A stretch of 33,105 nucleotides of DNA from Gemmatimonadota bacterium. GTDB taxonomy: Bacteria; Gemmatimonadota; Gemmatimonadetes; Gemmatimonadales; GWC2-71-9. Position numbers and translations under genes: made by a program. Below, piece by piece: positions 1,734-26,843 of the stretch (the stretch's first letter is position 1; each line of letters starts with the position of its first letter). A model generated the notes under the pieces. The model searched no databases, was not told the origin of the DNA, and worked only from the letters and a program-made list of their open reading frames with translations. Location: the NCBI GenBank assembly GCA_016794805.1, contig JAEUJI010000003.1:1-33105 (forward strand), given 5' to 3'.

Positions 1734-2756
1734 TCACCGGCCACCGAACGCGAGGTAGAGCGCGGCGGCGAGCGCGAGCAGCGCCAGCAGCCCCAGCACC
1801 GTGCGCCGGGGCTGGGCCGGCTGATCGCTGAGGGGCACGGGCGCGGGGCTGCCGGTGTAGACGGGTACCGGCTCGGTGGTGGCCTCCGCCTCGGTGAGCG
1901 GATAGACCTGGTGGCCCACCTCGGCGCTGCCGTCCGGCTCCGGCAGGCCGTCCCCGCCGAAGCGGGCGGCGATCGCCGTGATGTTGTCGGGACCGCCCCG
2001 CTCGTTGGCCACGGTGATGAGCCGCGAGCAGATATCCACGAGTTCGCCCCCCTCGGCGACCAGCTGGGCAATCTCCTCCTTCTTGACCTGACCGGAGAGC
2101 CCGTCGGAGCAGAGGACCAGGAGGTCGCCCCGGCGGAGGGGCTGGTAGGTGAGGTCCACCTTGACCCGCGGATCGGGGCCGAGCGCCTGGAGGATGATGT
2201 TGCGCCGCTCGCTCTGCTCGGCCTCCTCCTCGGTGATCTCCCCCGCCTCCACCAGCCGCTGCATGAGCGACTGGTCCTTGGTGATCTGGGTGATGGCGCC
2301 CTTCCGGATCAGGTAGGCCCGGCTGTCCCCGACCTGGGCCAGGTAGAGATCGCTGCCGAAGACGCCGGCCACCGTCGCGGTGGTGCCCATGCCGCGGACT
2401 TCGGGATGATCCTTGGCGTGGAGGTGGATCCGGTTGTTGGCCAGTTCCACGGCTTCCTTCATCCGGTAGGCGAATCGCTGCGCGCTGACGTCGCTGTCCT
2501 CGCCCCAGGCGCTCGACATGTGACTGAAGACCAGGTCGGCGGCCATGCGGCTGGCGACCTCGCCGGCGGCCGCCCCGCCCATGCCGTCCGCGACCATGAA
2601 CAGCGTGCCGCGCTGCCCGACGTCGTGCTCGCGCACGTCGGGCTGCAGGGACGCGACCTTCCGGGTCAGGTCCGCGACGAGGAAGGTGTCCTCGTTGTGG
2701 TCGCGGGTCTTGCCCACGTCGGTCTTGCCGAAGACGGAGATGTGCACGTTAGCCAA
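1734..2756 (-). CDS. PP2C-family Ser/Thr protein phosphatase, membrane-anchored
   Basis: A 340-residue phosphatase expected to reverse the phosphorylation made by the adjacent kinase. The PP2C domain fills about residues 5-245 and has the metal-binding and core motifs: RDHNEDTFLV near the N-terminus, VADGMGGAAAGEVAS, LYLAQVGDSRAYLI, LLVLCSDGLSGQV and GGPDNITAI. A Pro-rich linker is followed by a C-terminal hydrophobic helix (about 318-337), so it is tail-anchored with the catalytic domain in the cytoplasm. The start is a TTG at 2756, chosen because GAGG sits 4 nt upstream of it and because it begins only 6 nt after the stop of the kinase gene. A GTG three codons later is the alternative. This matches the prpC/stp partners found beside PknB-type kinases. 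Confidence 0.93.
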   Translation of the reverse strand: MANVHISVFGKTDVGKTRDHNEDTFLVADLTRKVASLQPDVREHDVGQRGTLFMVADGMGGAAAGEVASRMAADLVFSHMSSAWGEDSDVSAQRFAYRMKEAVELANNRIHLHAKDHPEVRGMGTTATVAGVFGSDLYLAQVGDSRAYLIRKGAITQITKDQSLMQRLVEAGEITEEEAEQSERRNIILQALGPDPRVKVDLTYQPLRRGDLLVLCSDGLSGQVKKEEIAQLVAEGGELVDICSRLITVANERGGPDNITAIAARFGGDGLPEPDGSAEVGHQVYPLTEAEATTEPVPVYTGSPAPVPLSDQPAQPRRTVLGLLALLALAAALYLAFGGR

Positions 2757-2762
2757 GTTGCC

Positions 2763-4501
<1,739 letters not shown>

Positions 4502-4505
<4 letters not shown>

Positions 4506-5419
4506 CCGATCTCCGCCCGGAGCATCTGGTCGCCGGCGAGGAGCCGCGCGCCGGGCGGCACCCGCCGTTCTCCCCGCACCGCGACGGCCACGCCGTTCCG
4601 GCTCCCGGCATCGACCAGGACGAAGTCGGCGTCCTCGCTCCGGATGAGGGCATGGAGGGCGCTCATCGAGGAATCGTATGGGAACTGCCAGTCCCCCTGC
4701 TCCCGGCCCACCCGCACCGACCGCCCCGGGGAAAGCGTCAGGATATCGCGGGCGCTGCCATCGCCCCGGACCTGGGCCAGGTTGGCGATGTCCGCCGCCG
4801 GCGTCAGGCTGCCGAGCCGCCGGGTCTGGTCCTGCTCCGGGGGACGCGGCCCGGGATAGCCAAGCCGGCGGTAGCGGAGGATCTGGCTCCCGAGGAGGAT
4901 GAGGTCTCCGTCGGTGAGCTTGTGGGGTTCGTCGAGGTAGAGCCAGGTGCCGTTCTTGCTGCCGAGGTCCCGGAGGGTCAGGATGCCGTCGATCAGGAGG
5001 AACTGGGCGTGCAGCGGCGAGAGATAATCGTCGTCGGGGAAATTGACGTCTGCCCCCTGACGGCCCAGCGTCGTTACGGCATTGAGCAGCGGGAAGCGCT
5101 GCGCGACCTGGCCGCCCCGGTCCAGCAGGGCAAGGTGCGCCGTGACGGGCCCACCACTCTTGGCCGGGGGGGCGGGAACCTGCGGCTGCGGCCCGGTATT
5201 GCCAAAGGCGGCCCCGCAGGCGGGGCAGAACTTGGAGCCCTGCTCGTTCAGCCGACCGCACCGGGTGCAGGCATGCGCCGCCCGCGCCTGGGTCAGCCGC
5301 GTGCCGCACTGGCCGCAGAAGGGCAGGTCGGCGGCGACGCCGGCGTTGCAGCTCGGACACTTCACGCTGGCGCCCGCACCCGCCGGGCCGCGCGAGACCT
5401 CCGGCGCCGGTGGTGACAT
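4502..5419 (-). CDS. Double zinc-ribbon, double FHA domain protein
   Basis: A 305-residue soluble protein, first gene of the phospho-signalling operon. Two Cys4 zinc ribbons occupy the N-terminus (Cys21/24/35/38 and Cys51/54/65/68). A Pro-rich spacer is followed by a first FHA domain (about 92-172, with TLGRQ, SPLHAQF and DLGSKNGTW) and a second, more divergent one (about 205-300, with VRVGRE, SALHALI and DAGSRNGVAV). FHA domains bind phosphothreonine peptides, so this is a likely adaptor that docks on the kinase encoded next, with which it shares a 4-nt overlap. The start at 5419 is chosen because GAGGGG lies just upstream; an in-frame ATG at 5467 would add 16 basic residues. The 5' leader from the predicted promoter is about 107 nt. 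Confidence 0.88.
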
Positions 5420-9883: not shown

Positions 9884-11914
9884 ATGTTCTGCTCACGGTG
9901 CGGCGCGGAAGTTCAGCCTGCCACGCAATTCTGCCCTACCTGCGGGCTGGATCTCCGGGTGACGACGCCGGTGCAGGCGATCGCCACCGGGGACGTCACC
10001 GAACTCGACATCGTGCGCGAGGCGCTGTCCGACGAGTACGAGCTGCTCGAGGAGCTCGGCCGCGGCGGCATGGCCATCGTGTATCGCGCGATGGACAAGC
10101 ACCTCGAGCGCGAAGTCGCCATCAAGGTCCTTCCCTTCTCGCTGGCCTTCGACGCCGAATTCGTCGAGCGCTTCACCCGGGAAGCCCGCACCTCCGCCCA
10201 GCTCGAGCACCCGAACATCATCCCCATCTATCGCGTCGGGAAGACCGGGCGCGTCATCCACTTCGTGATGAAGTTCCTGCGCGGCGGCTCGCTGTCGCGG
10301 GTGATGGCCGAGCGGAAGAAGCTCACGCCGGCCGAGATCCGGAAGCTGCTCACCGACGTCGGCGGGGCGCTGGGGTACGCGCACAAGCGGGGGATCGTCC
10401 ATCGGGACATCAAGCCCGACAACATCATGTTCGACGAATTCGGGCAGTGCGTGGTGACGGACTTCGGCATCGCCAAGGCGGGCACCGGCTCCAAGCTCAC
10501 CGGCACCGGCATGTCCATCGGCACCCCGCACTACATGAGCCCGGAGCAGGCGCGGGCCCAGAGCATCGACGGCCGGAGCGACCTCTACAGCCTCGGCATC
10601 CTGGCCTACCAGGCCCTGGTGGGAGAGGTTCCGTACGATGGGGAGGACAGCTTCGCCATCGGGTACAAGCACATCATGGAGCCGATCCCGGTGCCCCTGC
10701 TCGACACCGTGGACGAGCGCCGGGTCTTCGAGATCATCAAGCGGCTGATCGCGAAGGACCCGTTCGACCGGTTCCAGGACGCGGAGGCGCTGCTCAAGGC
10801 GCTGGAGGGCCAGCCGCGGGAATCGGTGGCGGCGCGCAGGATCTCCACCGCCCAGGCCATCCTGTCTCCCCAGTCCACCACTCCGCTTCCAGCCGGGTCG
10901 GTCCCGCTGTCGCCGCTCTCCCAGTCGGGCTCCAACCCGGCCCTCCCGCCGCGCCGGGCGTCGGAGTCGGTCATGATGCCCGGGGAGGCGCGGCGCCCGG
11001 TCATGCGCCGGTCGGTGGTGGTGCAGGAGCCGCCCAAGACGGGATGGGTGCCGTGGATGTTCGTCCTGCTGGCCGTGCTGGGCTTTGCCCTGGGCGGGCT
11101 CTACCTCTATAGGGCCGGCGTGCTGGGGGGGCCGGTGCGGCCGGACAGCCTCCCCGGGGCAGCCGCTCCGGACACCCTGCAGGCCGGGGATTCGCTCTTC
11201 GACGAAGATGCGCTGCTGCCCGGCGCGGTCCCGGACGGGCAGGGCGCCGCCTTCGCGCCCGAGACTCCCGCCAGCCGGCCCGTCGTGGCGCCCCCGGCGA
11301 GCGCCACCCGGCCGGAGCCGGCCCCGACGGACAGCGGAGTGCTGCTCTTCTCGTCGCTGCCCGCCGGTACCAATCTCTTCATCGACTCGCGACTGGTCAC
11401 CCAGGGGAGCGGCGGCATATCGCTGCCGTCCGGCTGGCACGAAGTCGGCATCTCGGCTCCCGGCTATGCGCTGTATATCGACAGTGTCCGGATCGAGGGG
11501 GGCCGCACGGTGCAGTTCGCTCCCAACCTGAGCGCCACCAATTCGCCGGCGCCACCGCCCGGCTCGGCCGCCGAGCTGCGGCGGCGGGCGCTCGCCCGTC
11601 TCGATTGCGACAACCCGGCGGCGGCCAACAAGTTCGGCCGGGCCTGCTACGACACCCCGCCGCAGCCCCTCGGCCCGATGCGAGTCCCGATCCCCAACGG
11701 CGGGCGCACGCACCCATCCCCTGTCGTCCTGATCGTGAAAGTGTCGCGCCAGGGGAAGACCCTCGCGCTCCGGACCCGGCAGGCCTCCAACGACCCCGCC
11801 TTCACCCGCGCGGTCGAGAGCTATGCCCAGGGGATGACCTGGACCCCCGCCATGCGCGAGGGCCAGCCGGTGGACGGCTGGACTCAGGCCCCCTTCCAGC
11901 CCGACACCCCGTGA
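9884..11914 (+). CDS. Ser/Thr kinase with zinc ribbon, TM, PEGA and TonB-C-like domains
   Basis: A 676-residue transmembrane kinase. Zinc ribbon: Cys3, Cys6, Cys17 and Cys20. Kinase domain about 52-309: GRGGMAIV (59-66), Lys81 in VAIKV, HRD 173-175 with catalytic Asp175, DFG 193-195, GTPHYMSPEQ. A Ser/Pro-rich juxtamembrane segment (310-385) precedes the TM helix (388-409). Outside the membrane come a Pro-rich linker, a PEGA domain (about 484-548: SSLPAGTNLFID ... LPSGWHEVGISAPGY), two Cys (575, 588) that could form a disulfide, and a C-terminal domain (598-675) resembling TonB-C. PEGA and TonB-C modules suggest contact with envelope or outer-membrane components, which would make it an envelope sensor; that is inference. 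It ends in a GTGA overlap with the next gene. Confidence 0.93.
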   Translation: MFCSRCGAEVQPATQFCPTCGLDLRVTTPVQAIATGDVTELDIVREALSDEYELLEELGRGGMAIVYRAMDKHLEREVAIKVLPFSLAFDAEFVERFTREARTSAQLEHPNIIPIYRVGKTGRVIHFVMKFLRGGSLSRVMAERKKLTPAEIRKLLTDVGGALGYAHKRGIVHRDIKPDNIMFDEFGQCVVTDFGIAKAGTGSKLTGTGMSIGTPHYMSPEQARAQSIDGRSDLYSLGILAYQALVGEVPYDGEDSFAIGYKHIMEPIPVPLLDTVDERRVFEIIKRLIAKDPFDRFQDAEALLKALEGQPRESVAARRISTAQAILSPQSTTPLPAGSVPLSPLSQSGSNPALPPRRASESVMMPGEARRPVMRRSVVVQEPPKTGWVPWMFVLLAVLGFALGGLYLYRAGVLGGPVRPDSLPGAAAPDTLQAGDSLFDEDALLPGAVPDGQGAAFAPETPASRPVVAPPASATRPEPAPTDSGVLLFSSLPAGTNLFIDSRLVTQGSGGISLPSGWHEVGISAPGYALYIDSVRIEGGRTVQFAPNLSATNSPAPPPGSAAELRRRALARLDCDNPAAANKFGRACYDTPPQPLGPMRVPIPNGGRTHPSPVVLIVKVSRQGKTLALRTRQASNDPAFTRAVESYAQGMTWTPAMREGQPVDGWTQAPFQPDTP

Positions 11915-16239: not shown

Positions 16240-17115
16240 ATGCGTCTCCTCCCCCTCGGCCCCGGTCTCCCCGCGGTCTCCGTCGTCGGCTATGGCGGGA
16301 TGCACCTCTCCATCCAGGATCGGCCCCCGGAAGCCCAGGGCATCCGGGTGATTCACGCCGGCCTCGACGCCGGCGTGACGCTCATTGACACCGCCAATGC
16401 CTACTGCCTCGACGCGGCCGACACCGGCCACAACGAGCGCCTGATTGCCCGGGCGCTCCGGGAGTGGCGCGGGGCGCGGGAGCGAGTGGTCGTGGCCACC
16501 AAGGGTGGGATCGTCCGAACCGGAGGGCGCTGGGACCGCGATGGCCGGCCCGAGAGCCTCAAGGCCGCCTGCGACGCCTCACTCCGCGCGCTGGGCGTGG
16601 AGCAGATTGCCCTGTACCAGCTGCACGCCCCCGACCCCTCGGTGCCGTTCCTCGAGAGCGTGGGGGCGCTGGCCGAGCTGCGGCGCGCCGGGAAGATCCG
16701 GTGGCTGGGGTTGTCCAATGTCTCGGTGGACCAGATCCGGCAGGCGCAGGGCGTCGCCCCCATCGCCACGGTCCAGAACCGGCTGAACCCCTTTTTTCGC
16801 GAGGCGATCCAGGACGGCGTCGTGCGCTACTGTGGGGAGCAGGGTATCGGCTTCCTGGCCTACAGCCCGACCGGCGGGGGGCGGCTCACCAGGAAGCTGC
16901 CCACGGACCCGGTGCTCTCCACGATCGCCCGGCGGACCGGGTTGGGCGCCCACCAGCTCTGCCTCGCCTGGGTGCTGGCTCAGGGCCCGACCGTCTTCGT
17001 CATTCCCAGCGCCCGCAAGGTGGAGCACCTTCTCGACAGCACCGGCGCGGCGGACCTGACGCTTACCCCGGCGGACCTTGCCGCCATCACCGGGGCGCAG
17101 TTCGACCGGAGCTGA
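16240..17115 (+). CDS. Aldo/keto reductase
   Basis: A 291-residue TIM-barrel oxidoreductase expected to use NADPH to reduce aldehydes or ketones. The catalytic tetrad is visible: Asp50 and Tyr55 in LIDTANAY, Lys88 in VVVATKGG, His129 in LYQLHAPD. Later barrel motifs include [27 protein letters not shown] and VFVIPSARK, the last for NADP phosphate contact. It resembles the YajO/PLR-like branch with a compact C-terminus. Substrate unknown. I prefer the ATG at 16240 over a TTG at 16234 that would add two residues. Upstream 53 nt show no promoter, so it may be cotranscribed with the small gene before it. Confidence 0.92.
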
Positions 17116-17152
17116 TCCGGCCCCCGGACAATTCCCCGGCCCCGAGCCGGGA

Positions 17153-17158
17153 TATATT
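17153..17158 (+). promoter_or_regulatory. Possible -10 element of ispG, leaderless start
   Basis: TATATT is the only AT-rich hexamer in a very GC-rich gap and lies 7 nt before the ispG ATG. No Shine-Dalgarno is present and no convincing -35 is seen at 17-18 nt. Confidence 0.35.
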
Positions 17159-17165
17159 TCCCGCC

Positions 17166-18401
17166 ATGTCCAACGCCACCCGCCGGCCGACCGTCACCAC
17201 CTGGATCGGTGACGTCCCCGTAGGCAGCGATCACCCGATCGTGGTCCAGTCCATGACCAACACCGACACCGCCGACGTCCCCGGGACGATCCGGCAGGTG
17301 GCGGCCCTCGCCAAGGCGGGGAGTCAGCTGGTCCGGGTGACCGTCAATAACGAAGCGGCGGCCCAGGCGGTGCCGGCCATCGTGGCCGGCCTGGCGGAGC
17401 AGGGGGTCATCGTCCCTATCGTCGGGGACTTCCACTACAACGGCCACATTCTCCTCACCCGCTATCCGGAGTGCGCCGCCGCCCTGGCCAAGTACCGGAT
17501 CAACCCCGGCAACGTGGGCGGCAAGCGGGCCGATGAGAACTTCCGGGCGATCATCGAGGTGGCGCTGCGGAACGACAAGCCGGTGCGGATCGGAGTGAAC
17601 TGGGGCTCCCTGGACCAGATCCTGCTCACCGAACTGATGGACGCCAACGCCCTCCTTCCTGCGCCCCGGGACGCACGGGACGTGATGATGGATGCGATGC
17701 TCGAAAGCGCGCTCCGCTCCGCGGCTCACGCGGAGTCGCTGGGGATGGCGCACGACCGGATCATCCTGAGCGCCAAGGTGTCCGGGGTGCAGGACCTCGT
17801 CGATGTGTACCGGCTGCTGGCCGCGCGTTGCGACTACCCGCTGCACCTGGGCCTCACCGAGGCGGGAATGGGCACCAAGGGGGTGGTCGCCAGCGCCGCG
17901 GGGCTCGCCATCCTGCTCCAGGAGGGGATCGGGGACACGATCCGGGTCTCCCTCACCCCGCGGCCCGGGGGCGACCGGACCGAGGAGGTGCTGGTGGCGC
18001 AGCAGATCCTCCAGTCGCTGGAGCTGCGGAGCTTCGCGCCCCAGGTGACCGCCTGCCCGGGGTGCGGCCGCACCACCAGCACGTTCTTCCAGCAGATGGC
18101 CGAGGACATCCAGGGCTACCTGCGGCAGCAGATGCCCGAGTGGCGGGAGCGCTATCCCGGTGTGGAGGAGCTCAAGCTGGCGGTCATGGGGTGCGTGGTG
18201 AACGGGCCGGGAGAATCGAAGCACGCCAACATCGGAATCTCCCTGCCGGGGACCTTCGAGGAGCCCAAGGCGCCGGTCTATGTGGACGGCCGCCTGATGG
18301 TGACGCTCAAGGGGGACACCATCGTGGCCGACTTCCTCCGCCTCCTCGACGAGTATGTGGAAAACCGGTATGGCGCTGCCGCTCGATCAGGTACTGCGTG
18401 A
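17166..18401 (+). CDS. ispG: 4-hydroxy-3-methylbut-2-en-1-yl diphosphate synthase
   Basis: A 411-residue iron-sulfur enzyme of the MEP isoprenoid pathway, converting MEcPP to HMBPP. Family hallmarks in order: [13 protein letters not shown] near the N-terminus, [62 protein letters not shown], then the 4Fe-4S region with [12 protein letters not shown] and [12 protein letters not shown], which supplies three Cys, followed by a Glu. It is the short bacterial form without the inserted plant-type domain. The same frame is open upstream inside the aldo/keto reductase gene, but homology and the -10 element place the start at 17166. Its 3' end overlaps the start of the CcdA-type gene by 32 nt. Confidence 0.97.
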
Positions 18402-19071
18402 GGCCCCGCTTACCGGACTGGCGCTGATGTTCGGCGCCGGTCTGGTGACCAGCCTGACTCCCTGCGTCTATCCCATGATTCCCATCGTCGCCGGAGTGCT
18501 GGGTGGCGCCGGCGCCCGGGAGCGTTCCCGGGGACGGACCGTGGCGTACACTGCGGTGTACATCCTCGGCGTAGCGCTGGTGTACGCCGCCCTGGGCCTG
18601 CTGGCGGGGCTGACCGGGTCGCTCTTCGGGGCGGTCAGCTCCAACCGGTGGTCCTACTTCGCCATCGGCAACCTGTTGCTGCTCTTCGCGCTGGCGCTGC
18701 TGGACGTGTTTCCTGTGACGGTGCCCCAGCGGTTCCTCAACTGGGCCAACCGCTTCGGTGGCGGCTCGGTGGGCGGGGTGTTCGCCATGGGAGCCACGTC
18801 CGGCCTGGTGGCCGCCCCCTGCGGGGCACCGGCCTTCGCCGCGGCGCTCACGTTCGTCACCACCACGGGGAGTGCCGTGTGGGGTTTCCTGTACCTGTTC
18901 GTCTTTTCCCTCGGGATGACCGCGCTGCTGGCGCTGGTAGGCCTCACCTCCGGCATGGCGGCGGTCCTCCCCCGCAGTGGACGCTGGACCGCCTGGATCA
19001 AGCGGGGGGCGGGCGTCGTCCTGCTGGGCATGGCCGAGTACTACTTCATCCAGATGGGAATGGTCTCCTGA
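18370..19071 (+). CDS. CcdA/DsbD-type transmembrane thiol-electron transporter
   Basis: A 233-residue integral membrane protein with six predicted TM helices that should carry reducing equivalents from cytoplasmic thioredoxin to the periplasm. The two redox cysteines sit in the expected places: Cys32 in [11 protein letters not shown] of TM1 and Cys151 in [10 protein letters not shown] of TM4. It corresponds to the isolated DsbD beta domain and lacks the soluble alpha and gamma domains. The ATG at 18370 overlaps the ispG 3' end; an ATG at 18355 is an alternative. It is coupled to the TlpA-like gene (TGATG overlap) and an exported peroxiredoxin follows, so its main job here is probably feeding these partners rather than cytochrome c maturation, of which no other gene is seen. 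Confidence 0.92.
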
Positions 19072-19577
19072 TGCGCATGCTGCTGCAGGCTGGGTCCCTC
19101 GCCGCGGTGCTGGTAGCCGCCCCGCTTGCGGCCCAGGGTGAATCGGGTATCCGGGTCGGTGATCGGGCCCCGGTGCTCAGCGTCAACGACCTCGATGGCA
19201 AGCCGGTGAACCTGGGCCAGTGGATCGGGAAGAAGCCGGTGCTGATCGAGTTCTGGGCCACCTGGTGCTCCAACTGCGAGGAACTGCTGCCGCGGTTCCG
19301 TGAGGCGCAGAAGCTGGTAGGGGACCGCGTCGAGTTCATCGGAGTCAACGTCACCGTCAACCAGACCCCCGCCCGGGTGCGCCGCTACCTCGAGGATCAC
19401 CCCATCCCCTTCCGGGTGCTCTACGACGATGAGGGTGCCAGCACCCGGGCCTACCTGGCCCCGGCCACCAGCTACGTGGTGATCGTGGACCGGGCCGGCA
19501 ACGTGGTCTACACCGGCGTCGGGGCCGACCAGCGATTCGAGCCGGCGCTCAAGCGGGTAGCCGGAGTCCAGGAGTAG
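19071..19577 (+). CDS. TlpA-like exported thioredoxin
   Basis: A 168-residue protein with a signal peptide ending PLAA before Gln22, then a thioredoxin fold with active site WCSNC (Cys66, Cys69) in LIEFWATWCSNCEELLP. The start overlaps the stop of the CcdA-type gene by one base. Where TlpA/ResA proteins normally have the cis-Pro directly before Thr, this one reads LAPATSYVVI, so Ala occupies that position and Pro is one residue earlier; this may alter substrate choice. From context it is the soluble carrier that takes electrons from the CcdA-type protein and passes them to the peroxiredoxin encoded 3 nt downstream. That relay is inference from gene order. Confidence 0.92.
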   Translation: MRMLLQAGSLAAVLVAAPLAAQGESGIRVGDRAPVLSVNDLDGKPVNLGQWIGKKPVLIEFWATWCSNCEELLPRFREAQKLVGDRVEFIGVNVTVNQTPARVRRYLEDHPIPFRVLYDDEGASTRAYLAPATSYVVIVDRAGNVVYTGVGADQRFEPALKRVAGVQE

Positions 19578-19580
19578 TCC

Positions 19581-20171
19581 ATGCGCATGCTGACAGTGGC
19601 GGTCACCGCCCTCATGCTGGTCATCTCCCTCCCGCTCACGGCCCAGGACCGGGACACGACGATTGGTCGCCCCACTGCGGTCCTCGTCTCGGGGCCGCGC
19701 GAGGGGGACCGGGCCCCTGACTTTCTCCTCCCCTGGGCCAGCAGGGACACCGTGGTCGGTTCGGAGCCATGGTTCGGCCTGAGCGGGCAGCGAGGCAAGG
19801 TGGTGGTCCTGGCCTTCTACCCCAAAGCGTTCACCCCGGGCTGCACCGCCGAGATGCGCACCTTTGCCGACCAGTACGCCGAGCTGTTCGGCGAGGATGT
19901 GGTGGTGGTGGGGATCAGCGCCGACTCGCTCGAGACGCAGCAGCGCTTCGCCGCCAGTCTCGGCCTCCCCTTCCGCCTGCTCTCCGACCGGGACCAGAAG
20001 GTCGCGAAGCTGTACGGCAGCGCGGATCGCGAGGGATATAACCGCCGCACCGTGTACGTCGTCGACCGGCAGGGCCGGGTGGCCTATGCCGACCTCCGCT
20101 TCCGCGCCCTGGAGCCCGCATCCTACCGCGACCTCGACCGGGCCGTGGACGCCGCCCGGGCGGGTCGCTGA
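19581..20171 (+). CDS. Exported one-Cys peroxiredoxin (Bcp/AhpC-TSA family)
   Basis: A 196-residue peroxiredoxin with a signal peptide ending LPLTA before Gln22. The peroxidatic cysteine is Cys88 in PKAFTPGCTAEM, the canonical PxxxTxxC setting. No other Cys occurs in the protein, so the resolving Cys of typical Bcp enzymes is missing and an external thiol must regenerate it. The TlpA-like thioredoxin encoded just upstream is the obvious donor. It should act on peroxides in the periplasm. GGAG lies 6 nt before the ATG and overlaps the tlpA-like stop, so the genes are one transcript. Confidence 0.92.
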   Translation: MRMLTVAVTALMLVISLPLTAQDRDTTIGRPTAVLVSGPREGDRAPDFLLPWASRDTVVGSEPWFGLSGQRGKVVVLAFYPKAFTPGCTAEMRTFADQYAELFGEDVVVVGISADSLETQQRFAASLGLPFRLLSDRDQKVAKLYGSADREGYNRRTVYVVDRQGRVAYADLRFRALEPASYRDLDRAVDAARAGR

Positions 20172-20194
20172 CCCTCTCTCAGGACCCCATCCAG

Positions 20195-21046
20195 ATGCCC
20201 CTGTTCTGTCGTCGCTGGACCGCCGTGGCCACGATTGCCCGTGCCCTCCCGGTCCTGGTGCTTCTCCCGCTCTCGCTCCAGGCCCAGGATACCGGGGCGC
20301 TCGCGGAGCCCAAGGTCACCTGGGAGATCGGGGAGGGGCAGGGGAACTGGTGCGTGCATCTCCTGCTCGACCCCCGCGCCGCCGCGGACCTGGCCATCAG
20401 GGGCCAGCGACCGGTGGCCGCCCGCGACTACCCCCTCCTCCACCCCGCGCTGCGCCGGGTCCTCACCGACGAGCCGCAGTACGCCGAGTGGGTTCCCTCC
20501 CAGGTCTGCCTCTGGTTCACCAAGGGGGTGTCCATTGGGAAACGGGACTACGAGCGGGCAGATGGGGGGAAGAAGCCGCTGGCGATCTTCTGGTGGGGGC
20601 TGGTCGCCACCGGGGACCGGCTCGGCTCCGGGCCGGGGCTGTCCCAGATCGTCCTGGCAACCAACAATTCCGGCCTCAAGCGGCAGATGGAGCTGTCCTT
20701 CATCCAGATGGAGCGGATCGAGATCAACCGGGAGCCCGTCCCGGAATCGGACGATGAGCAGTACCGGCTGCGCCTCGATCGGACCGACCTGGTCTTCTCC
20801 GGCCACCCCCGACCGGACTCGACCCTGAGCCTGGGCCCGGTCGGGCACCATTGGGCAGTCCGGGGGGATGGCAATCGGGTCTGGCAGGTCGAGTTCAGCG
20901 CCTATCCCACCCGGATCTCCGCCCTCCCTGGGGCCCTGAGATTCCAGGGGAAGGGAAAGCTCGCGGAGGCCCTTTCCGCGTCACCCATCCGGCTCGTTGG
21001 GACCTTCCTGGAGGGCGGTACGGCCTGGATGAAGTTCGTGGAGTAG
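20195..21046 (+). CDS. Exported protein of unknown function
   Basis: A 283-residue protein that I do not recognise. A signal peptide (basic start, hydrophobic PVLVLLPLSL) ends LQA before Gln31. The mature part is mixed alpha/beta with no repeat or TM segment. It has just two Cys (53 in GNWCVHL, 105 in SQVCLWF), which could form a disulfide. The last gene of the redox operon, 23 nt after the peroxiredoxin and directly before a terminator, it may be a substrate or partner of that system. AGGA sits 11 nt upstream of the ATG, rather far for a ribosome site. Confidence 0.8.
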   Translation: MPLFCRRWTAVATIARALPVLVLLPLSLQAQDTGALAEPKVTWEIGEGQGNWCVHLLLDPRAAADLAIRGQRPVAARDYPLLHPALRRVLTDEPQYAEWVPSQVCLWFTKGVSIGKRDYERADGGKKPLAIFWWGLVATGDRLGSGPGLSQIVLATNNSGLKRQMELSFIQMERIEINREPVPESDDEQYRLRLDRTDLVFSGHPRPDSTLSLGPVGHHWAVRGDGNRVWQVEFSAYPTRISALPGALRFQGKGKLAEALSASPIRLVGTFLEGGTAWMKFVE

Positions 21047-21073
21047 CCGCTTCCCGAAGCCCCGGCTGATGTG

Positions 21074-21114
21074 GAAACCTCGATCCGCCGTCCCGGATCG
21101 GGGTTTCTCCTTTT
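21074..21114 (+). terminator. Rho-independent terminator of the redox operon
   Basis: A 13-bp stem with one G-U pair (21074-21086 with 21095-21107; left arm GAAACCTCGATCC), 8-nt loop, then TCCTTTT ending at 21114. It starts 28 nt after the stop of the last operon gene. Confidence 0.85.
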
Positions 21115-21487
21115 GCCCCACTCCCCCCGGCCTACGGCCGGGCGGTCAGCATACCGGCTGTATATACACAATCTGTGCATAGAATACTCGGCACTGGCGA
21201 CACTGTCGCCACCCCTATTATCAACATCCGTCGTGACGTTTTTCCCATTGTGGGAACTGTGTTTAGCCGTTTGACCTCAAGTGGAAAACCAGCTGGAGGT
21301 CTAGTTGTTTATGCCACAGCGCCATGCAACCGGTATTCAGGCTGTTTCCCCATTCCACATGTGGATAAAGGCATGATTCCACAGGCGTGGGAGACTCAGT
21401 GTCGGAGTCGTGGCGGCTCCTACTGGCCACCGCTTTTTGTGTGGATAATTGTCATTGCGACGGCATTGTCAGTTTTCCACGACCGGA
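21115..21487 (+). other. Gene-free AT-richer region with DnaA boxes, origin-like
   Basis: This gap between the redox operon and the amidohydrolase is clearly less GC-rich than the rest of the window and shows no credible gene. It contains two perfect DnaA boxes in the same orientation, TGTGGATAA at 21360-21368 and 21440-21448. One-mismatch matches to TTATNCACA lie at 21162-21170, 21174-21182 (reverse) and 21218-21226. A two-mismatch form, TTTTCCACG, is at 21473-21481. Short palindromes lie at 21196-21210 (GGCGACA-C-TGTCGCC), 21242-21256 (TTCCCA-TTG-TGGGAA) and 21354-21365 (TCCACATGTGGA, overlapping the first perfect box), plus a GC hairpin at 21126-21142. The pattern fits a chromosomal origin or a DnaA-titrating or DnaA-regulated site. 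No dnaA, dnaN or other usual oriC neighbour is in the window. Confidence 0.5.
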
Positions 21488-21516
21488 TGGTCGTGGGTCG
21501 GCGCCGGGAGTAAGTT
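21488..21516 (+). promoter_or_regulatory. Possible promoter of the amidohydrolase gene, leaderless start
   Basis: TGGTCG (21488-21493), 17-nt spacer, TAAGTT (21511-21516), then 5 nt to the GTG at 21522. Spacing and -10 to start distance match those of the kinase promoter at 9849-9878. Confidence 0.4.
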
Positions 21517-21521
21517 GGGGC

Positions 21522-23096
21522 GTGGATCCTCCCCAACTCCCAGCATCCACCGGCCTGCTACGCGGCGGCCAGGTTCTCTCCCTCGTCCCGGGGGTGGAGG
21601 GTGACGCCATCTGGTGGCAGGAGGGTGTAATCCGGGCGGTTGCCACCGCCGCCGAGCTGGAGCGCCGGGTCCCCTCGAGGGTGCCCAGGTACGACCTTCC
21701 CCGCACCCTGATCACCCCTGGAATCGTGGACGGGCACACCCACTTCGCGATGTGGGCCCAAGGACGGAGACGGGTCCATCTCGCCGGTGCCAGCCGCCGG
21801 TCGGAGGCCCTGCGCCGGGTGGCGGGGGGGACGATCGAGCAGGGGTGGCTGCGGGGCCACGGCTGGGACGCGAACCGATGGGACGAGGCACCGGACCGGC
21901 GGTCGCTCGACGCGGTGGTCCCGGCCCCCGTCTTCCTGGAATCGGTAGATATCCACGCCGCCTGGGTGAACAGCGCGGCGCTGGCCCGGGCCGGGGTGGA
22001 CCGGAGCACGCCCGACCCGGTTGGGGGTCGGATCGTCCGCGATGCGGCGGGTGAGCCCACGGGGCTCCTGCTCGAGCGCGCCGTGGACCTGGTTCGCGCC
22101 GTGCTCCCGGCCCCGGATCCGGAGGGGCTTGTGACCGCCCTCCGTCAGGCTCAGGCCGATGCCCATGCGCTGGGCCTCACCGGCATTCACTCCATGGAAG
22201 GCCCCGACGCCCTGCGGGCCTTCCAGACCCTGGAGCGGCGAGGGGAACTGCGGCTACGGGTGTTCTTCCACCCGCCGGTGGCCCAGCTCCCCGACCTGCT
22301 CCGGCATCAGGCGCGGAGTGGGGAGGGGACGGGCTGGCTGGCCCTGGGCGGCATCAAGCTGTTCCTCGATGGCAGCCTGGGAAGCCGGACGGCCTGGATG
22401 CTCGAGCCCTATGAGGGGGGCGCCGACCACGGCCTGCCGCTGGCGGACACCGCCAACGCACGGCGGGTGGTGGAGGCCGCGGCCGGCGCCGGCATCGCGA
22501 GCACCATCCACGCCATCGGCGATGCGGCGGTGCGCCAGGCGCTGGACCTGCTGGCGCCGCTCCCTTCCGCGGCCCTCCCGCACCGGATCGAGCACTTTCA
22601 GTGTGTGCACCCCGCCGACCTGGGTCGCGCCGCGGCGCACGGCATCGTGCTGTCGATGCAGCCCGCGCACCTCCCCGCGGACGTGGCGCTCGCGGAGGAG
22701 CGGTGGGGGGCCCGCAGCAGCCGGGTGTACCCGTTCCGGTCACTGCAGGAGTCCGGCGCGGTCCTGGCCTTCGGCAGCGACGTCCCGGTGGCCTCCCCGG
22801 ATCCCCGGCAGGGGATCGCGGCGGCCATGGCGCGGGTGGCGGCGGACGGCAGCTTCGGCGAAGGGTGGCACGCCGGGGAGCGGCTCGATTTCGAGTCTGC
22901 GCTCCGGGCCTACACGGTGGGGAACGCCATTGCCGGCGGCGTGGCGAGCCGCCGCGGGCGGCTGGCCCCGGGGTATGACGCGGACCTGGTGGTGTGGAGC
23001 CTGGATGCCGGGGTGGCACGGGGGGACTGGCTCGCGGTGCGCGAGGCGCAGGTCCGCCTCACCGTCGTGGCCGGCGAGGTGGTGTTCCGCCGCTGA
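21522..23096 (+). CDS. YtcJ-like amidohydrolase (amidohydrolase family 3)
   Basis: A 524-residue metal-dependent hydrolase with the amidohydrolase TIM barrel flanked by N- and C-terminal beta pieces. Metal-site and family motifs are visible in order: GIVDGHTHF (HxH), SVDIHAAWVNSAAL, GGIKLFLDGSLGSRTAWML with a Lys, STIHAIGDAAVRQAL, HRIEHFQ and FGSDVPVASPDPRQG with the catalytic Asp. YtcJ-type proteins have no firmly established substrate. No signal peptide, so cytoplasmic. The reading frame is open back to 21387, but that part overlaps the DnaA-box region and shows no homology. The GTG at 21522 begins the conserved part and has a -10 box 5 nt upstream; this start is likely, not certain. Confidence 0.88.
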   Translation: MDPPQLPASTGLLRGGQVLSLVPGVEGDAIWWQEGVIRAVATAAELERRVPSRVPRYDLPRTLITPGIVDGHTHFAMWAQGRRRVHLAGASRRSEALRRVAGGTIEQGWLRGHGWDANRWDEAPDRRSLDAVVPAPVFLESVDIHAAWVNSAALARAGVDRSTPDPVGGRIVRDAAGEPTGLLLERAVDLVRAVLPAPDPEGLVTALRQAQADAHALGLTGIHSMEGPDALRAFQTLERRGELRLRVFFHPPVAQLPDLLRHQARSGEGTGWLALGGIKLFLDGSLGSRTAWMLEPYEGGADHGLPLADTANARRVVEAAAGAGIASTIHAIGDAAVRQALDLLAPLPSAALPHRIEHFQCVHPADLGRAAAHGIVLSMQPAHLPADVALAEERWGARSSRVYPFRSLQESGAVLAFGSDVPVASPDPRQGIAAAMARVAADGSFGEGWHAGERLDFESALRAYTVGNAIAGGVASRRGRLAPGYDADLVVWSLDAGVARGDWLAVREAQVRLTVVAGEVVFRR

Positions 23097-23174
23097 CCTG
23101 GCGCGGTGGATGTCCCGGACCCGGCAGTGGTCAGGGCGCCGCGCGCCGCCGTTCCGCCGCTCCCGCCGGACGAT

Positions 23175-23180
23175 TAGACT
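23175..23180 (+). promoter_or_regulatory. Possible -10 element of the pyk gene
   Basis: TAGACT in an otherwise GC-rich gap, about 44 nt before the GTG start. The hexamer 17 nt upstream (TTCCGC) is a poor -35, so this is tentative. Confidence 0.25.
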
Positions 23181-23224
23181 CCCCACCACTTGAGCCCCCG
23201 CCGCCCGCCAGCCTGAGGAGTCCC

Positions 23225-24688
<1,464 letters not shown>

Positions 24689-24690
24689 GG

Positions 24691-25470
24691 GTGAAGCTCA
24701 CTTTTCTCGGCACCGGCACGTCGTTCGGCGTCCCGCAGATCGGCTGCCACTGCCCGGTGTGCAGCTCCCGCGACCCGCGGGACCACCGGACCCGCTCGGG
24801 GGCGTTGCTGGAGGCCGGGGGGCGGACCCTCCTGATCGACACCGGGCCCGAGCTGCGGCTGCAGCTCCTGGCCGCAGGGGTGAACCGGGTGGACGCGGTG
24901 CTCTACACTCACGAGCATGCCGACCACCTGAACGGGATCGATGACCTCCGCATCTTCTCCGTGAAGCAGCGGGGGCCCCTGGTCTGCTACGGGCCGGCGG
25001 AGACCCTGGCCCGGGTGCGGGAGGGGTTCCGGTACATCTTCGATCACGAGGTGCACGCCTTCGAGGGCACCTCGAAGCCGCAGCTCCAGCTGCAGGCCCT
25101 GGAGCCGGGGATGCCCACCGAGATCGCCGGCATCCAGGTGCTGCCACTGGCGTTCGAGCACGGGTTCCTGCGGGTCTTCGGCTACCGCTTCGGGCCGATC
25201 GCCTACATCACCGACGTGAAGGCCGTGCCGCCGGAGGCCTACGGCGCGCTGGCGGGGCTGGAGGTCCTGGTGCTCAATTCACTCTGGTGGCGGCCGCACC
25301 CGACCCACCTTTCGATCGGCGAGGCGATCGACACCGCCCGCGCCCTCGGCGCGGAGCGCACGTACCTCACCCACCTTACCCATGAGACCGGACACGCCGA
25401 GCTGGCGGCCCAGTTGCCGCCCGGCGTCCTTCCCGCCTACGACGGGCTTTCGATCGAGGTCAACGGATGA
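24691..25470 (+). CDS. PhnP-like metallo-beta-lactamase-fold phosphodiesterase
   Basis: A 259-residue MBL-fold hydrolase. The di-metal motif THEHADH (His74, His76, Asp78, His79) and later ligands (LAFEHG, ITDVK, THLTHETGH) are present. Near the N-terminus GTGTSFGVPQIGCHCPVC carries Cys19, Cys21 and Cys24 in the CxCxxC spacing of the extra structural zinc site of PhnP, the 1,2-cyclic phosphodiesterase of the C-P lyase pathway. No phosphonate genes accompany it, so it more likely acts on another cyclic or linear phosphodiester. The GTG start lies 2 nt after pyk, and its stop overlaps pgi by 4 nt (ATGA), so all three genes are probably one transcript. Confidence 0.9.
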   Translation: MKLTFLGTGTSFGVPQIGCHCPVCSSRDPRDHRTRSGALLEAGGRTLLIDTGPELRLQLLAAGVNRVDAVLYTHEHADHLNGIDDLRIFSVKQRGPLVCYGPAETLARVREGFRYIFDHEVHAFEGTSKPQLQLQALEPGMPTEIAGIQVLPLAFEHGFLRVFGYRFGPIAYITDVKAVPPEAYGALAGLEVLVLNSLWWRPHPTHLSIGEAIDTARALGAERTYLTHLTHETGHAELAAQLPPGVLPAYDGLSIEVNG

Positions 25471-26843
25471 AGCTGCACTACGGACGGATGCTGAGTGACC
25501 GGCTGGATGGGGTGCACGGGCTGCCCCGTCCGCGCCTGCTGGAGCTGGCCCGCCGTTTTGGCGAAGTGCAGGCCGAGGTGCGCCGCCGCCGCGGCGCGGG
25601 AGAGTACGGCTTCTATGGCCTCGGAGACCAGGCGGCCTCCGTGACCCAGATCCGCCGTTTCGCCGAGGGGGTAGGGCAGGCGTTCGATCACGTCCTGGTC
25701 CTGGGGATCGGGGGCTCGGCGCTCGGCATGAAGGCGCTGCTCAATGCCCTGAAGCGGCCCGGCTGGAATGAGCTGGATGACGAAGGCCGGGAGTTCTTTC
25801 CCCGCCTCACTGTGCTGGACAACGTGGACCCGACGTCGGTGGCGGAAGCGCTCCGCCGGATGGACCCGCGCCGCGCCCTGGTCAACGTCATCAGCAAGTC
25901 CGGCGGTACCGCGGAGACCATGGCCCAGTACCTGGTGGTCCGGGAGTGGCTGGAGCGCGCGCTCGGCCCCGCTGCCGCCCGGCACCTGGTGTTCACTACC
26001 GACCCCGCGCGCGGGGCACTCCGGGAGATTGCGGCGCGGGATGGCATCGCGGCGCTCGAGGTGCCACCGGCGGTGGGCGGCCGCTTCAGCGTGCTGTCAC
26101 CGGTGGGGCTGCTCCCGGCGGCGCTGGTCGGGATCGACATCGAAGGGCTGCTCGCCGGGGCCCGCGATGCCCTGGCCGGCGCCGAGGCGGACGACCTGCT
26201 GCAGAATCAGTCCGCGCTCTGGTCGGCCCTCCACTGGGCGGCCGACACCGCGCTGGGGGCCCGCATCCACGTTCTGATGCCCTATACCGACCGGCTCCGG
26301 GAGTTCGCCGAGTGGTACCGGCAGCTCTGGGCTGAGAGCCTGGGCAAGGCGAAGGACCGCCGGGGGCAGGAGGTCCATACCGGCCCCACCCCGGTGGCCG
26401 CGGTCGGCCCCACCGACCAGCACAGCCAGGTGCAGCTCTTCATGGAGGGGCCCTTCGACAAGGTGGTCACCTTCATGGCAGTGGACCGGTTTGCCGAGGA
26501 TGTCACCATTCCCCAGGTGGCGGGACTCCCGGCGGATCTGGCCTACCTGCCAGGGCACTCGCTGGCCGGGCTCTTGCAGGCCGAGTATCAAGCCACCTCG
26601 GCCGCCCTCGCAAGCATGGGCCGGATGAACTGCTCGCTGCACCTGCCGGAGCTGTCCGCCCGGACCCTGGGGGAGGCCATCATGTTCTTCCAGCTCGCTA
26701 CCGGCTACGCCGGCGTCTGGTACGGGGTGGACCCGTTCGATCAGCCCGGTGTGGAGCTGGGCAAGCGACTCACCTTCGCCGCCATGGGGCGGGCTGGGTA
26801 CACCGCCGAACCGCTGGGGCTCCCCCCCGGCGACGTGGCGTAG
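25467..26843 (+). CDS. pgi: Glucose-6-phosphate isomerase
   Basis: A 458-residue isomerase interconverting glucose-6-phosphate and fructose-6-phosphate. Family motifs: VLVLGIGGSALGMKAL (about 76-91), NVISKSGGTAETM (phosphate binding), PYTDRLREFAEWYRQLWAESLGK, and the signature region TPVAAVGPTDQHSQVQLFMEGP with catalytic His. The active-site Lys is expected in GVELGKRL near the C-terminus, and it is there. Length matches the short bacterial/archaeal-like PGI group rather than the 550-residue E. coli type. The ATG overlaps the stop of the PhnP-like gene. Confidence 0.96.
   Translation: MKLHYGRMLSDRLDGVHGLPRPRLLELARRFGEVQAEVRRRRGAGEYGFYGLGDQAASVTQIRRFAEGVGQAFDHVLVLGIGGSALGMKALLNALKRPGWNELDDEGREFFPRLTVLDNVDPTSVAEALRRMDPRRALVNVISKSGGTAETMAQYLVVREWLERALGPAAARHLVFTTDPARGALREIAARDGIAALEVPPAVGGRFSVLSPVGLLPAALVGIDIEGLLAGARDALAGAEADDLLQNQSALWSALHWAADTALGARIHVLMPYTDRLREFAEWYRQLWAESLGKAKDRRGQEVHTGPTPVAAVGPTDQHSQVQLFMEGPFDKVVTFMAVDRFAEDVTIPQVAGLPADLAYLPGHSLAGLLQAEYQATSAALASMGRMNCSLHLPELSARTLGEAIMFFQLATGYAGVWYGVDPFDQPGVELGKRLTFAAMGRAGYTAEPLGLPPGDVA

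What the first reader, a model, noticed from the sequence alone, without database searches (positions are those of the whole stretch)
21115..21487. Cluster of DnaA boxes in a gene-free AT-richer patch: candidate replication origin
Two perfect TGTGGATAA boxes 80 nt apart in the same orientation, three one-mismatch boxes and three short palindromes, one fused to a perfect box, occur within about 320 nt of intergenic DNA that is far less GC-rich than its surroundings. I noticed no further perfect copies elsewhere in the window. The neighbours (redox operon, amidohydrolase, pyk) are not classic oriC neighbours, so this would be an origin away from dnaA, or a DnaA-titration or regulatory locus.
Basis: partly seen in the sequence, partly recalled or inferred. 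Interest (0 to 1): 0.65.

Follow-up and report, generated by a model that had tools for sequence, protein, structure and literature searches.

The report
Conserved DnaA-box cluster, not an origin
A short AT-rich gap in a Gemmatimonadales genome carries a cluster of binding sites for the replication initiator DnaA that is kept at the same place in many related genera, but base-composition tests in relatives argue that it is not where replication starts; it is more likely a DnaA-controlling side locus like E. coli datA or DARS.

Summary
Two perfect TGTGGATAA boxes (21360, 21440) are two of only five in the 3.9 Mb genome, and they lie in the lowest-GC stretch of the window. The gap is conserved: in 14 related genomes the matching gap upstream of (amidohydrolase-)pyk-mbl-pgi and/or downstream of the ispG-dsbD-trx-trx operon is a low-GC island with exact TTNTCCACA boxes. 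On 10 locus-bearing contigs, 19 of 28 such boxes fall in 0.8% of the DNA. A second element, the palindrome GGCGACACTGTCGCC, is also kept.
The origin reading is not supported. GC skew keeps one sign straight through the locus in the three relatives with significant skew on both flanks (304, 85 and 46 kb contigs). dnaA sits elsewhere, in the classic rpmH-yidC-mnmE cluster, linked to parB in relatives; a sister family has a better origin candidate beside parB. G005 and the window itself are only weakly origin-like.
Best explanation: a conserved, non-origin DnaA-binding locus that titrates DnaA or changes its nucleotide state (datA/DARS/DBC-like), with possible side effects on the neighbouring glycolytic operon. 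DnaA binding and function are inferred, not shown.

The parts
21047..21521 (.). Whole gene-free, low-GC island between the 283-aa gene (stop 21046) and the amidohydrolase (probable GTG start 21522)
   Evidence: ORFs, GC 0.566 vs 0.703 and lowest-GC stretches of the window; start codon inferred from the reading frame
21360..21368 (+). Perfect DnaA box TGTGGATAA (box II)
21351..21359 (-). Degenerate box (CATTCCACA read on +, core TTCCACA) abutting box II head to head; together the palindrome TCCACATGTGGA 21354-21365. The same abutting pair recurs in G004, G005, G010 and G014
21375..21383 (-). GATTCCACA, convergent with box II, spacer 6 nt; same box and spacing in G002 and G029
21440..21448 (+). 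Second perfect DnaA box TGTGGATAA
21473..21481 (-). Degenerate box TTTTCCACG, overlapping the hairpin CCACGACC-GGAT-GGTCGTGG (21477-21496)
21218..21226 (-). One-mismatch box TTATCAACA
21280..21288 (+). Degenerate box AGTGGAAAA
21196..21210 (.). Palindrome GGCGACACTGTCGCC, second conserved element of the island (CACTGTCGC in 8 of 14 islands)
21242..21256 (.). Short palindrome TTCCCATTGTGGGAA
21090..21104 (+). Terminator-like hairpin that probably ends the upstream operon
16464..21046 (+). Upstream block: ispG/gcpE, dsbD-like, two thioredoxin-fold genes, 283-aa gene without a Pfam match
21522..26843 (+). Downstream block: amidohydrolase, pyruvate kinase (pyk), metallo-beta-lactamase-fold gene, phosphoglucose isomerase (pgi)

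Best explanation
The gap is a conserved non-origin DnaA-binding locus of one Gemmatimonadales family. DnaA would bind the two perfect boxes and the abutting and convergent weaker boxes around 21351-21383, and assemble into an oligomer over about 130 to 260 nt. By holding DnaA, or by driving ATP hydrolysis or nucleotide exchange on it, the locus would help set initiation timing at an origin elsewhere, as datA, DARS and the B. subtilis and Streptomyces box clusters do. The palindrome GGCGACACTGTCGCC would be the site of a helper protein (unknown; a role like IHF or Fis). Shown: the boxes, the island, its conservation, the palindrome, and absence of a skew turn in relatives. Inferred: DnaA binding, oligomer formation, the effect on initiation, the helper.
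For: Exact TTNTCCACA boxes occur in the matching island of G002 (4), G004, G005, G008, G013, G015, G022, G027, G029, G033 and L294 (2 each), and L293, G034, G035 (1 each). On 10 locus-bearing contigs 19 of 28 boxes lie in 8 of 950 kb (248-fold, p about 2e-33). TTTTCCACA is in 9 of 14 islands and CACTGTCGC in 8 of 14; shuffles reach at most 4. Not an origin in relatives: skew (G minus C per kb) left/right is -23/-35 in G029, -22/-11 in G002, +35/+12 in G004. Not one gene's promoter: the next gene is amidohydrolase, pyk or, in G015, an unrelated gene with pyk 7.6 kb away. DnaA domain IV keeps the E. coli box-contact positions R399, R407, Q408, D433, H434, T436 (numbering from own knowledge), and a box lies in the dnaA-rpmH gap, as expected for autoregulation. 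Non-origin clusters of this sort are known (PMC5742627).
Against: No binding or phenotype data. G005 (-14/+11) and the window (-10/+5, not significant) have origin-like skew signs. The array usually lies 40-180 nt upstream of a start codon, which also fits transcription control. G014 and G010 keep the place and the palindrome or pair but only degenerate boxes; G019, G021 and G. aurantiaca lack boxes upstream of pyk, so the locus is not essential across the order.
Confidence: 0.6

Rival explanations
1. It is the chromosome origin (oriC) of this genome, away from dnaA: DnaA melts the AT-rich part of the gap and loads helicase there.
For: Dense boxes in both orientations, low GC, conserved place. 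In G005 the cumulative skew minimum lies at 13-25 kb with the locus at 13.2 kb, and rises for 225 kb after it. The window skew is weakly negative left and positive right.
Against: No skew turn at the locus in G029, G002, G004, although the array is kept there. dnaA lies in the classic dnaA-rpmH-yidC-mnmE cluster, and parB and dnaA share a contig other than that of the locus in G029, G014 and G035. In sister-family genomes G045 and G047 a tandem box pair beside parB sits exactly at the local skew minimum. Genes on both sides of the gap run in the same direction.
Confidence: 0.15
2. The boxes are mainly a DnaA-controlled promoter region for the downstream (amidohydrolase-)pyk-mbl-pgi operon, linking glycolysis to the replication cycle.
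For: The island lies directly upstream of pyk or amidohydrolase-pyk in nearly all genomes, stays on that side in L294 and G035 where the ispG block is inverted and moved, and in G034 boxes persist in the short gap (under 100 nt) between ispG and pyk. pyk has a known link to replication control in B. subtilis (PMC9009071).
Against: In G015 the boxes are 7.6 kb from pyk with opposite-strand genes between. The array reaches 300-400 nt upstream, long for a simple operator. No strong promoter was found on the sense strand (the scan covers sigma-70 consensus only).
Confidence: 0.18
3. The motif is the site of another regulator that happens to look like a DnaA box, acting together with whatever binds the palindrome.
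For: Position 3 varies freely and many sites are paired as inverted repeats, as for a dimeric regulator.
Against: TTATCCACA, TTGTCCACA and TTTTCCACA are accepted box variants (own knowledge); DnaA domain IV is standard; the same motif sits in the dnaA-rpmH gap and upstream of dnaA in G043, G058, G045, G047, G053 and G010.
Confidence: 0.06

Closest known systems
DARS1/DARS2 (E. coli DnaA-reactivating sequences)
   Same: Non-coding box cluster away from oriC; mixed orientation, one box opposed to others (DARS core: box I opposite to II and III, PMC5742627).
   Different: Spacing differs among relatives here; no IHF or Fis sites identified, a different palindrome instead; no activity shown.
datA (E. 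coli, DnaA-ATP hydrolysis and titration)
   Same: Non-coding, gene-free cluster of high-affinity plus weak boxes, conserved in place.
   Different: datA's essential boxes share one direction (PMC5742627); here they are paired in opposite directions. No IHF site identified.
Chromosomal DnaA-box clusters of B. subtilis and Streptomyces coelicolor
   Same: Box clusters outside oriC that repress untimely initiation (as cited in PMC5742627).
   Different: Other phylum and other gene neighbours; function here untested.
Bacterial oriC
   Same: AT-rich, gene-free, box-dense.
   Different: No skew turn in relatives; dnaA, rpmH and parB elsewhere.

Membership tests
oriC | Cluster of DnaA boxes in a gene-free AT-rich region | tested here: met
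oriC | GC skew changes sign (minimum) at the locus | tested here: not met
   Same sign on both sides in G029, G002 and G004; weakly origin-like in G005; not significant in the window
oriC | Near dnaA, rpmH, parAB or mnmG (usual, not obligatory) | tested here: not met
   dnaA on C215 and parB on C18 of the same assembly; on other contigs in relatives
oriC | Highest copy number in growing cells | not testable with these tools
   No reads available
datA/DARS-type DnaA-control locus | Non-coding DnaA-box cluster away from the origin, conserved in place among relatives | tested here: met
datA/DARS-type DnaA-control locus | Site for a DNA-bending helper (IHF, Fis) | tested here: inconclusive
   A conserved palindrome of unknown binder is present; IHF/Fis sites were not modelled
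datA/DARS-type DnaA-control locus | Promotes DnaA-ATP hydrolysis or ADP release; affects initiation timing | not testable with these tools
   Needs biochemistry and genetics
DARS core | Three boxes with fixed spacing, box I opposite to II and III | tested here: not met
   An opposed abutting pair is present, but spacing to the third box varies among relatives

The most novel reading that the evidence does not exclude
A DnaA-control locus peculiar to one Gemmatimonadales family, built from opposed box pairs plus its own palindrome GGCGACACTGTCGCC for an unknown partner, placed next to pyk-pgi so that initiator availability and central carbon metabolism are coupled through one cis element.
Probability: 0.2. 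Interest if true: 0.7.

Novelty: new variant of a known kind. Interest (0 to 1): 0.5.

Why it matters
I found no paper on the origin or on DnaA-control sites of Gemmatimonadota in the library searched. If right, this extends non-origin DnaA-control loci to a further phylum, gives a conserved site whose partner protein can be fished out, and warns that a dense conserved DnaA-box cluster is not enough to call an origin.

Tried and rejected
Direct DNA search for the gap in 60 relatives found nothing, so synteny was used. The palindrome alone as a marker in other genomes gave mostly chance hits in coding DNA. A second box pair in the genome (C41:1300/1716, AT-rich gap before an amidase gene) was considered as the real origin; its genes have no informative relatives among the held loci. 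The gap after parB in this family holds no boxes, so the family's origin was not found. No Rfam family in the window. The single-strand fold of the box region is only mildly more stable than shuffles (z -2.06), so no structured RNA is claimed.

Full report
Observation. The genome is a 3.91 Mb, 377-contig assembly of the order Gemmatimonadales: one syntenic relative is a named Gemmatimonadales MAG (L292, the same 9,646-bp contig as G033), and the order's complete genome G043 has the length 4,636,964 that I recall for Gemmatimonas aurantiaca T-27. Perfect TGTGGATAA occurs 5 times in the whole assembly against 4 for the reversed control pattern, so the box is not enriched genome-wide; two of the five lie within 89 nt here.

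Conservation. The gap's DNA is not alignable to 60 relatives, but the neighbours are. Thioredoxin and pgi orthologues led to matching loci in other genera of the same family. In them the gap is again a low-GC island holding exact TTNTCCACA boxes: G002 (4 boxes), G004, G005, G008, G013, G015, G022, G027, G029, G033 and L294 (2 each), L293, G034, G035 (1 each); G010 and G014 have degenerate pairs. On ten locus-bearing contigs, 19 of 28 exact boxes lie in the islands, which make up 0.8% of the sequence. The islands were found by gene order, but their centres were set on the boxes, so the p-value is somewhat flattering; the size of the effect is not in doubt.

Anatomy. Many boxes come in opposed pairs: abutting heads (TTxTCCACA|TGTGGAxAA in G004 and G005, degenerate in the window, G010, G014) and convergent pairs with short spacers (TGTGGATAA-N6-GATTCCACA in the window and G002, TGTGGAAAG-N6-GATTCCACA in G029; several in L293, L294, G035). 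A second element, the palindrome GGCGACACTGTCGCC, is perfect at the locus in the window, G033 and G014 (the last having lost good boxes) and recurs in part in others; CACTGTCGC is in 8 of 14 islands against at most 4 in shuffles. In relatives it lies on the upstream-gene side of the downstream box pair.

Is it an origin? In the window it is uninformative (left -10, right +5 per kb, not significant). In relatives that keep the array it is decisive where there is signal: G029 has strongly negative skew on both sides (z -12 and -9), G002 negative on both, G004 positive on both. Only G005 looks origin-like, with 13 kb on one side. The direction of the skew relative to the locus also differs between genomes, as expected for a locus that lies within a replichore. 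dnaA lies in the classic dnaA-rpmH-yidC-mnmE neighbourhood (gene names other than dnaA read by eye from the translations), and parB and dnaA share a contig other than that of the locus in G029, G014 and G035. In the sister family (G045, G047) a tandem pair TGTGGATAA-C-TGTGGATAA plus TGTTGATAA beside parB coincides with a local cumulative-skew minimum in both genomes: that is what an origin would be expected to look like in this order. The family's own origin was not found.

Is it one gene's promoter? The island mostly precedes (amidohydrolase-)pyk-mbl-pgi and stays with that side in L294 and G035, where the ispG block lies downstream in inverted orientation. But in G015 it stays with the ispG-trx side, 7.6 kb and opposite-strand genes away from pyk. 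The element therefore behaves as an independent unit at a conserved address, though transcriptional effects on the neighbour are likely.

Mechanism. DnaA of this genome has a standard box-reading domain IV, and a box sits in the dnaA-rpmH gap, as for autoregulation. I therefore infer DnaA binding and an oligomer seeded on the opposed pair, acting on DnaA availability or nucleotide state. Opposed boxes resemble DARS more than datA, whose essential boxes share a direction (PMC5742627), but the fixed DARS spacing is not met. Which of titration, hydrolysis or exchange applies cannot be told from sequence.

Noticed in passing
L081 (G000 C269) 2505-4529: A protein with two DnaA-type AAA+ domains in tandem and no DnaA domain IV, in a cluster with TPR/roadblock, DUF4388 and CheR genes; tandem Bac_DnaA matches recur in most genomes of the order. 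It looks like a signalling ATPase derived from DnaA.
   Followed up: partly
L083 7453-7545 and L084 6987-7075 (G045, G047): Tandem TGTGGATAA-C-TGTGGATAA plus TGTTGATAA beside parB, at a local cumulative GC-skew minimum: a good oriC candidate for the sister family.
   Followed up: partly
G043 1630566-1630627 and G058 1819309-1819422: Clusters of two and three TTNTCCACA boxes in the two complete Gemmatimonas-type genomes, nearer the terminus than the origin by sampled skew in G043; possible counterpart box locus, sequence not read.
   Followed up: no
L372 (G000 C41) 1300-1833: Second box-bearing AT-rich gap in the same genome (TGTGGAAAA, TGTTGAAAA, TTCTCCACA, TTATCAACA) before an amidase-like gene.
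   Followed up: partly
window 2763-5360 and 9884-11914: Two large serine/threonine protein kinases close together; one carries a zinc ribbon, PEGA and a TonB C-terminal domain.
   Followed up: no
window 20195-21046: 283-aa gene without a Pfam match, conserved at 25-33% identity at the same place in many relatives.
   Followed up: no
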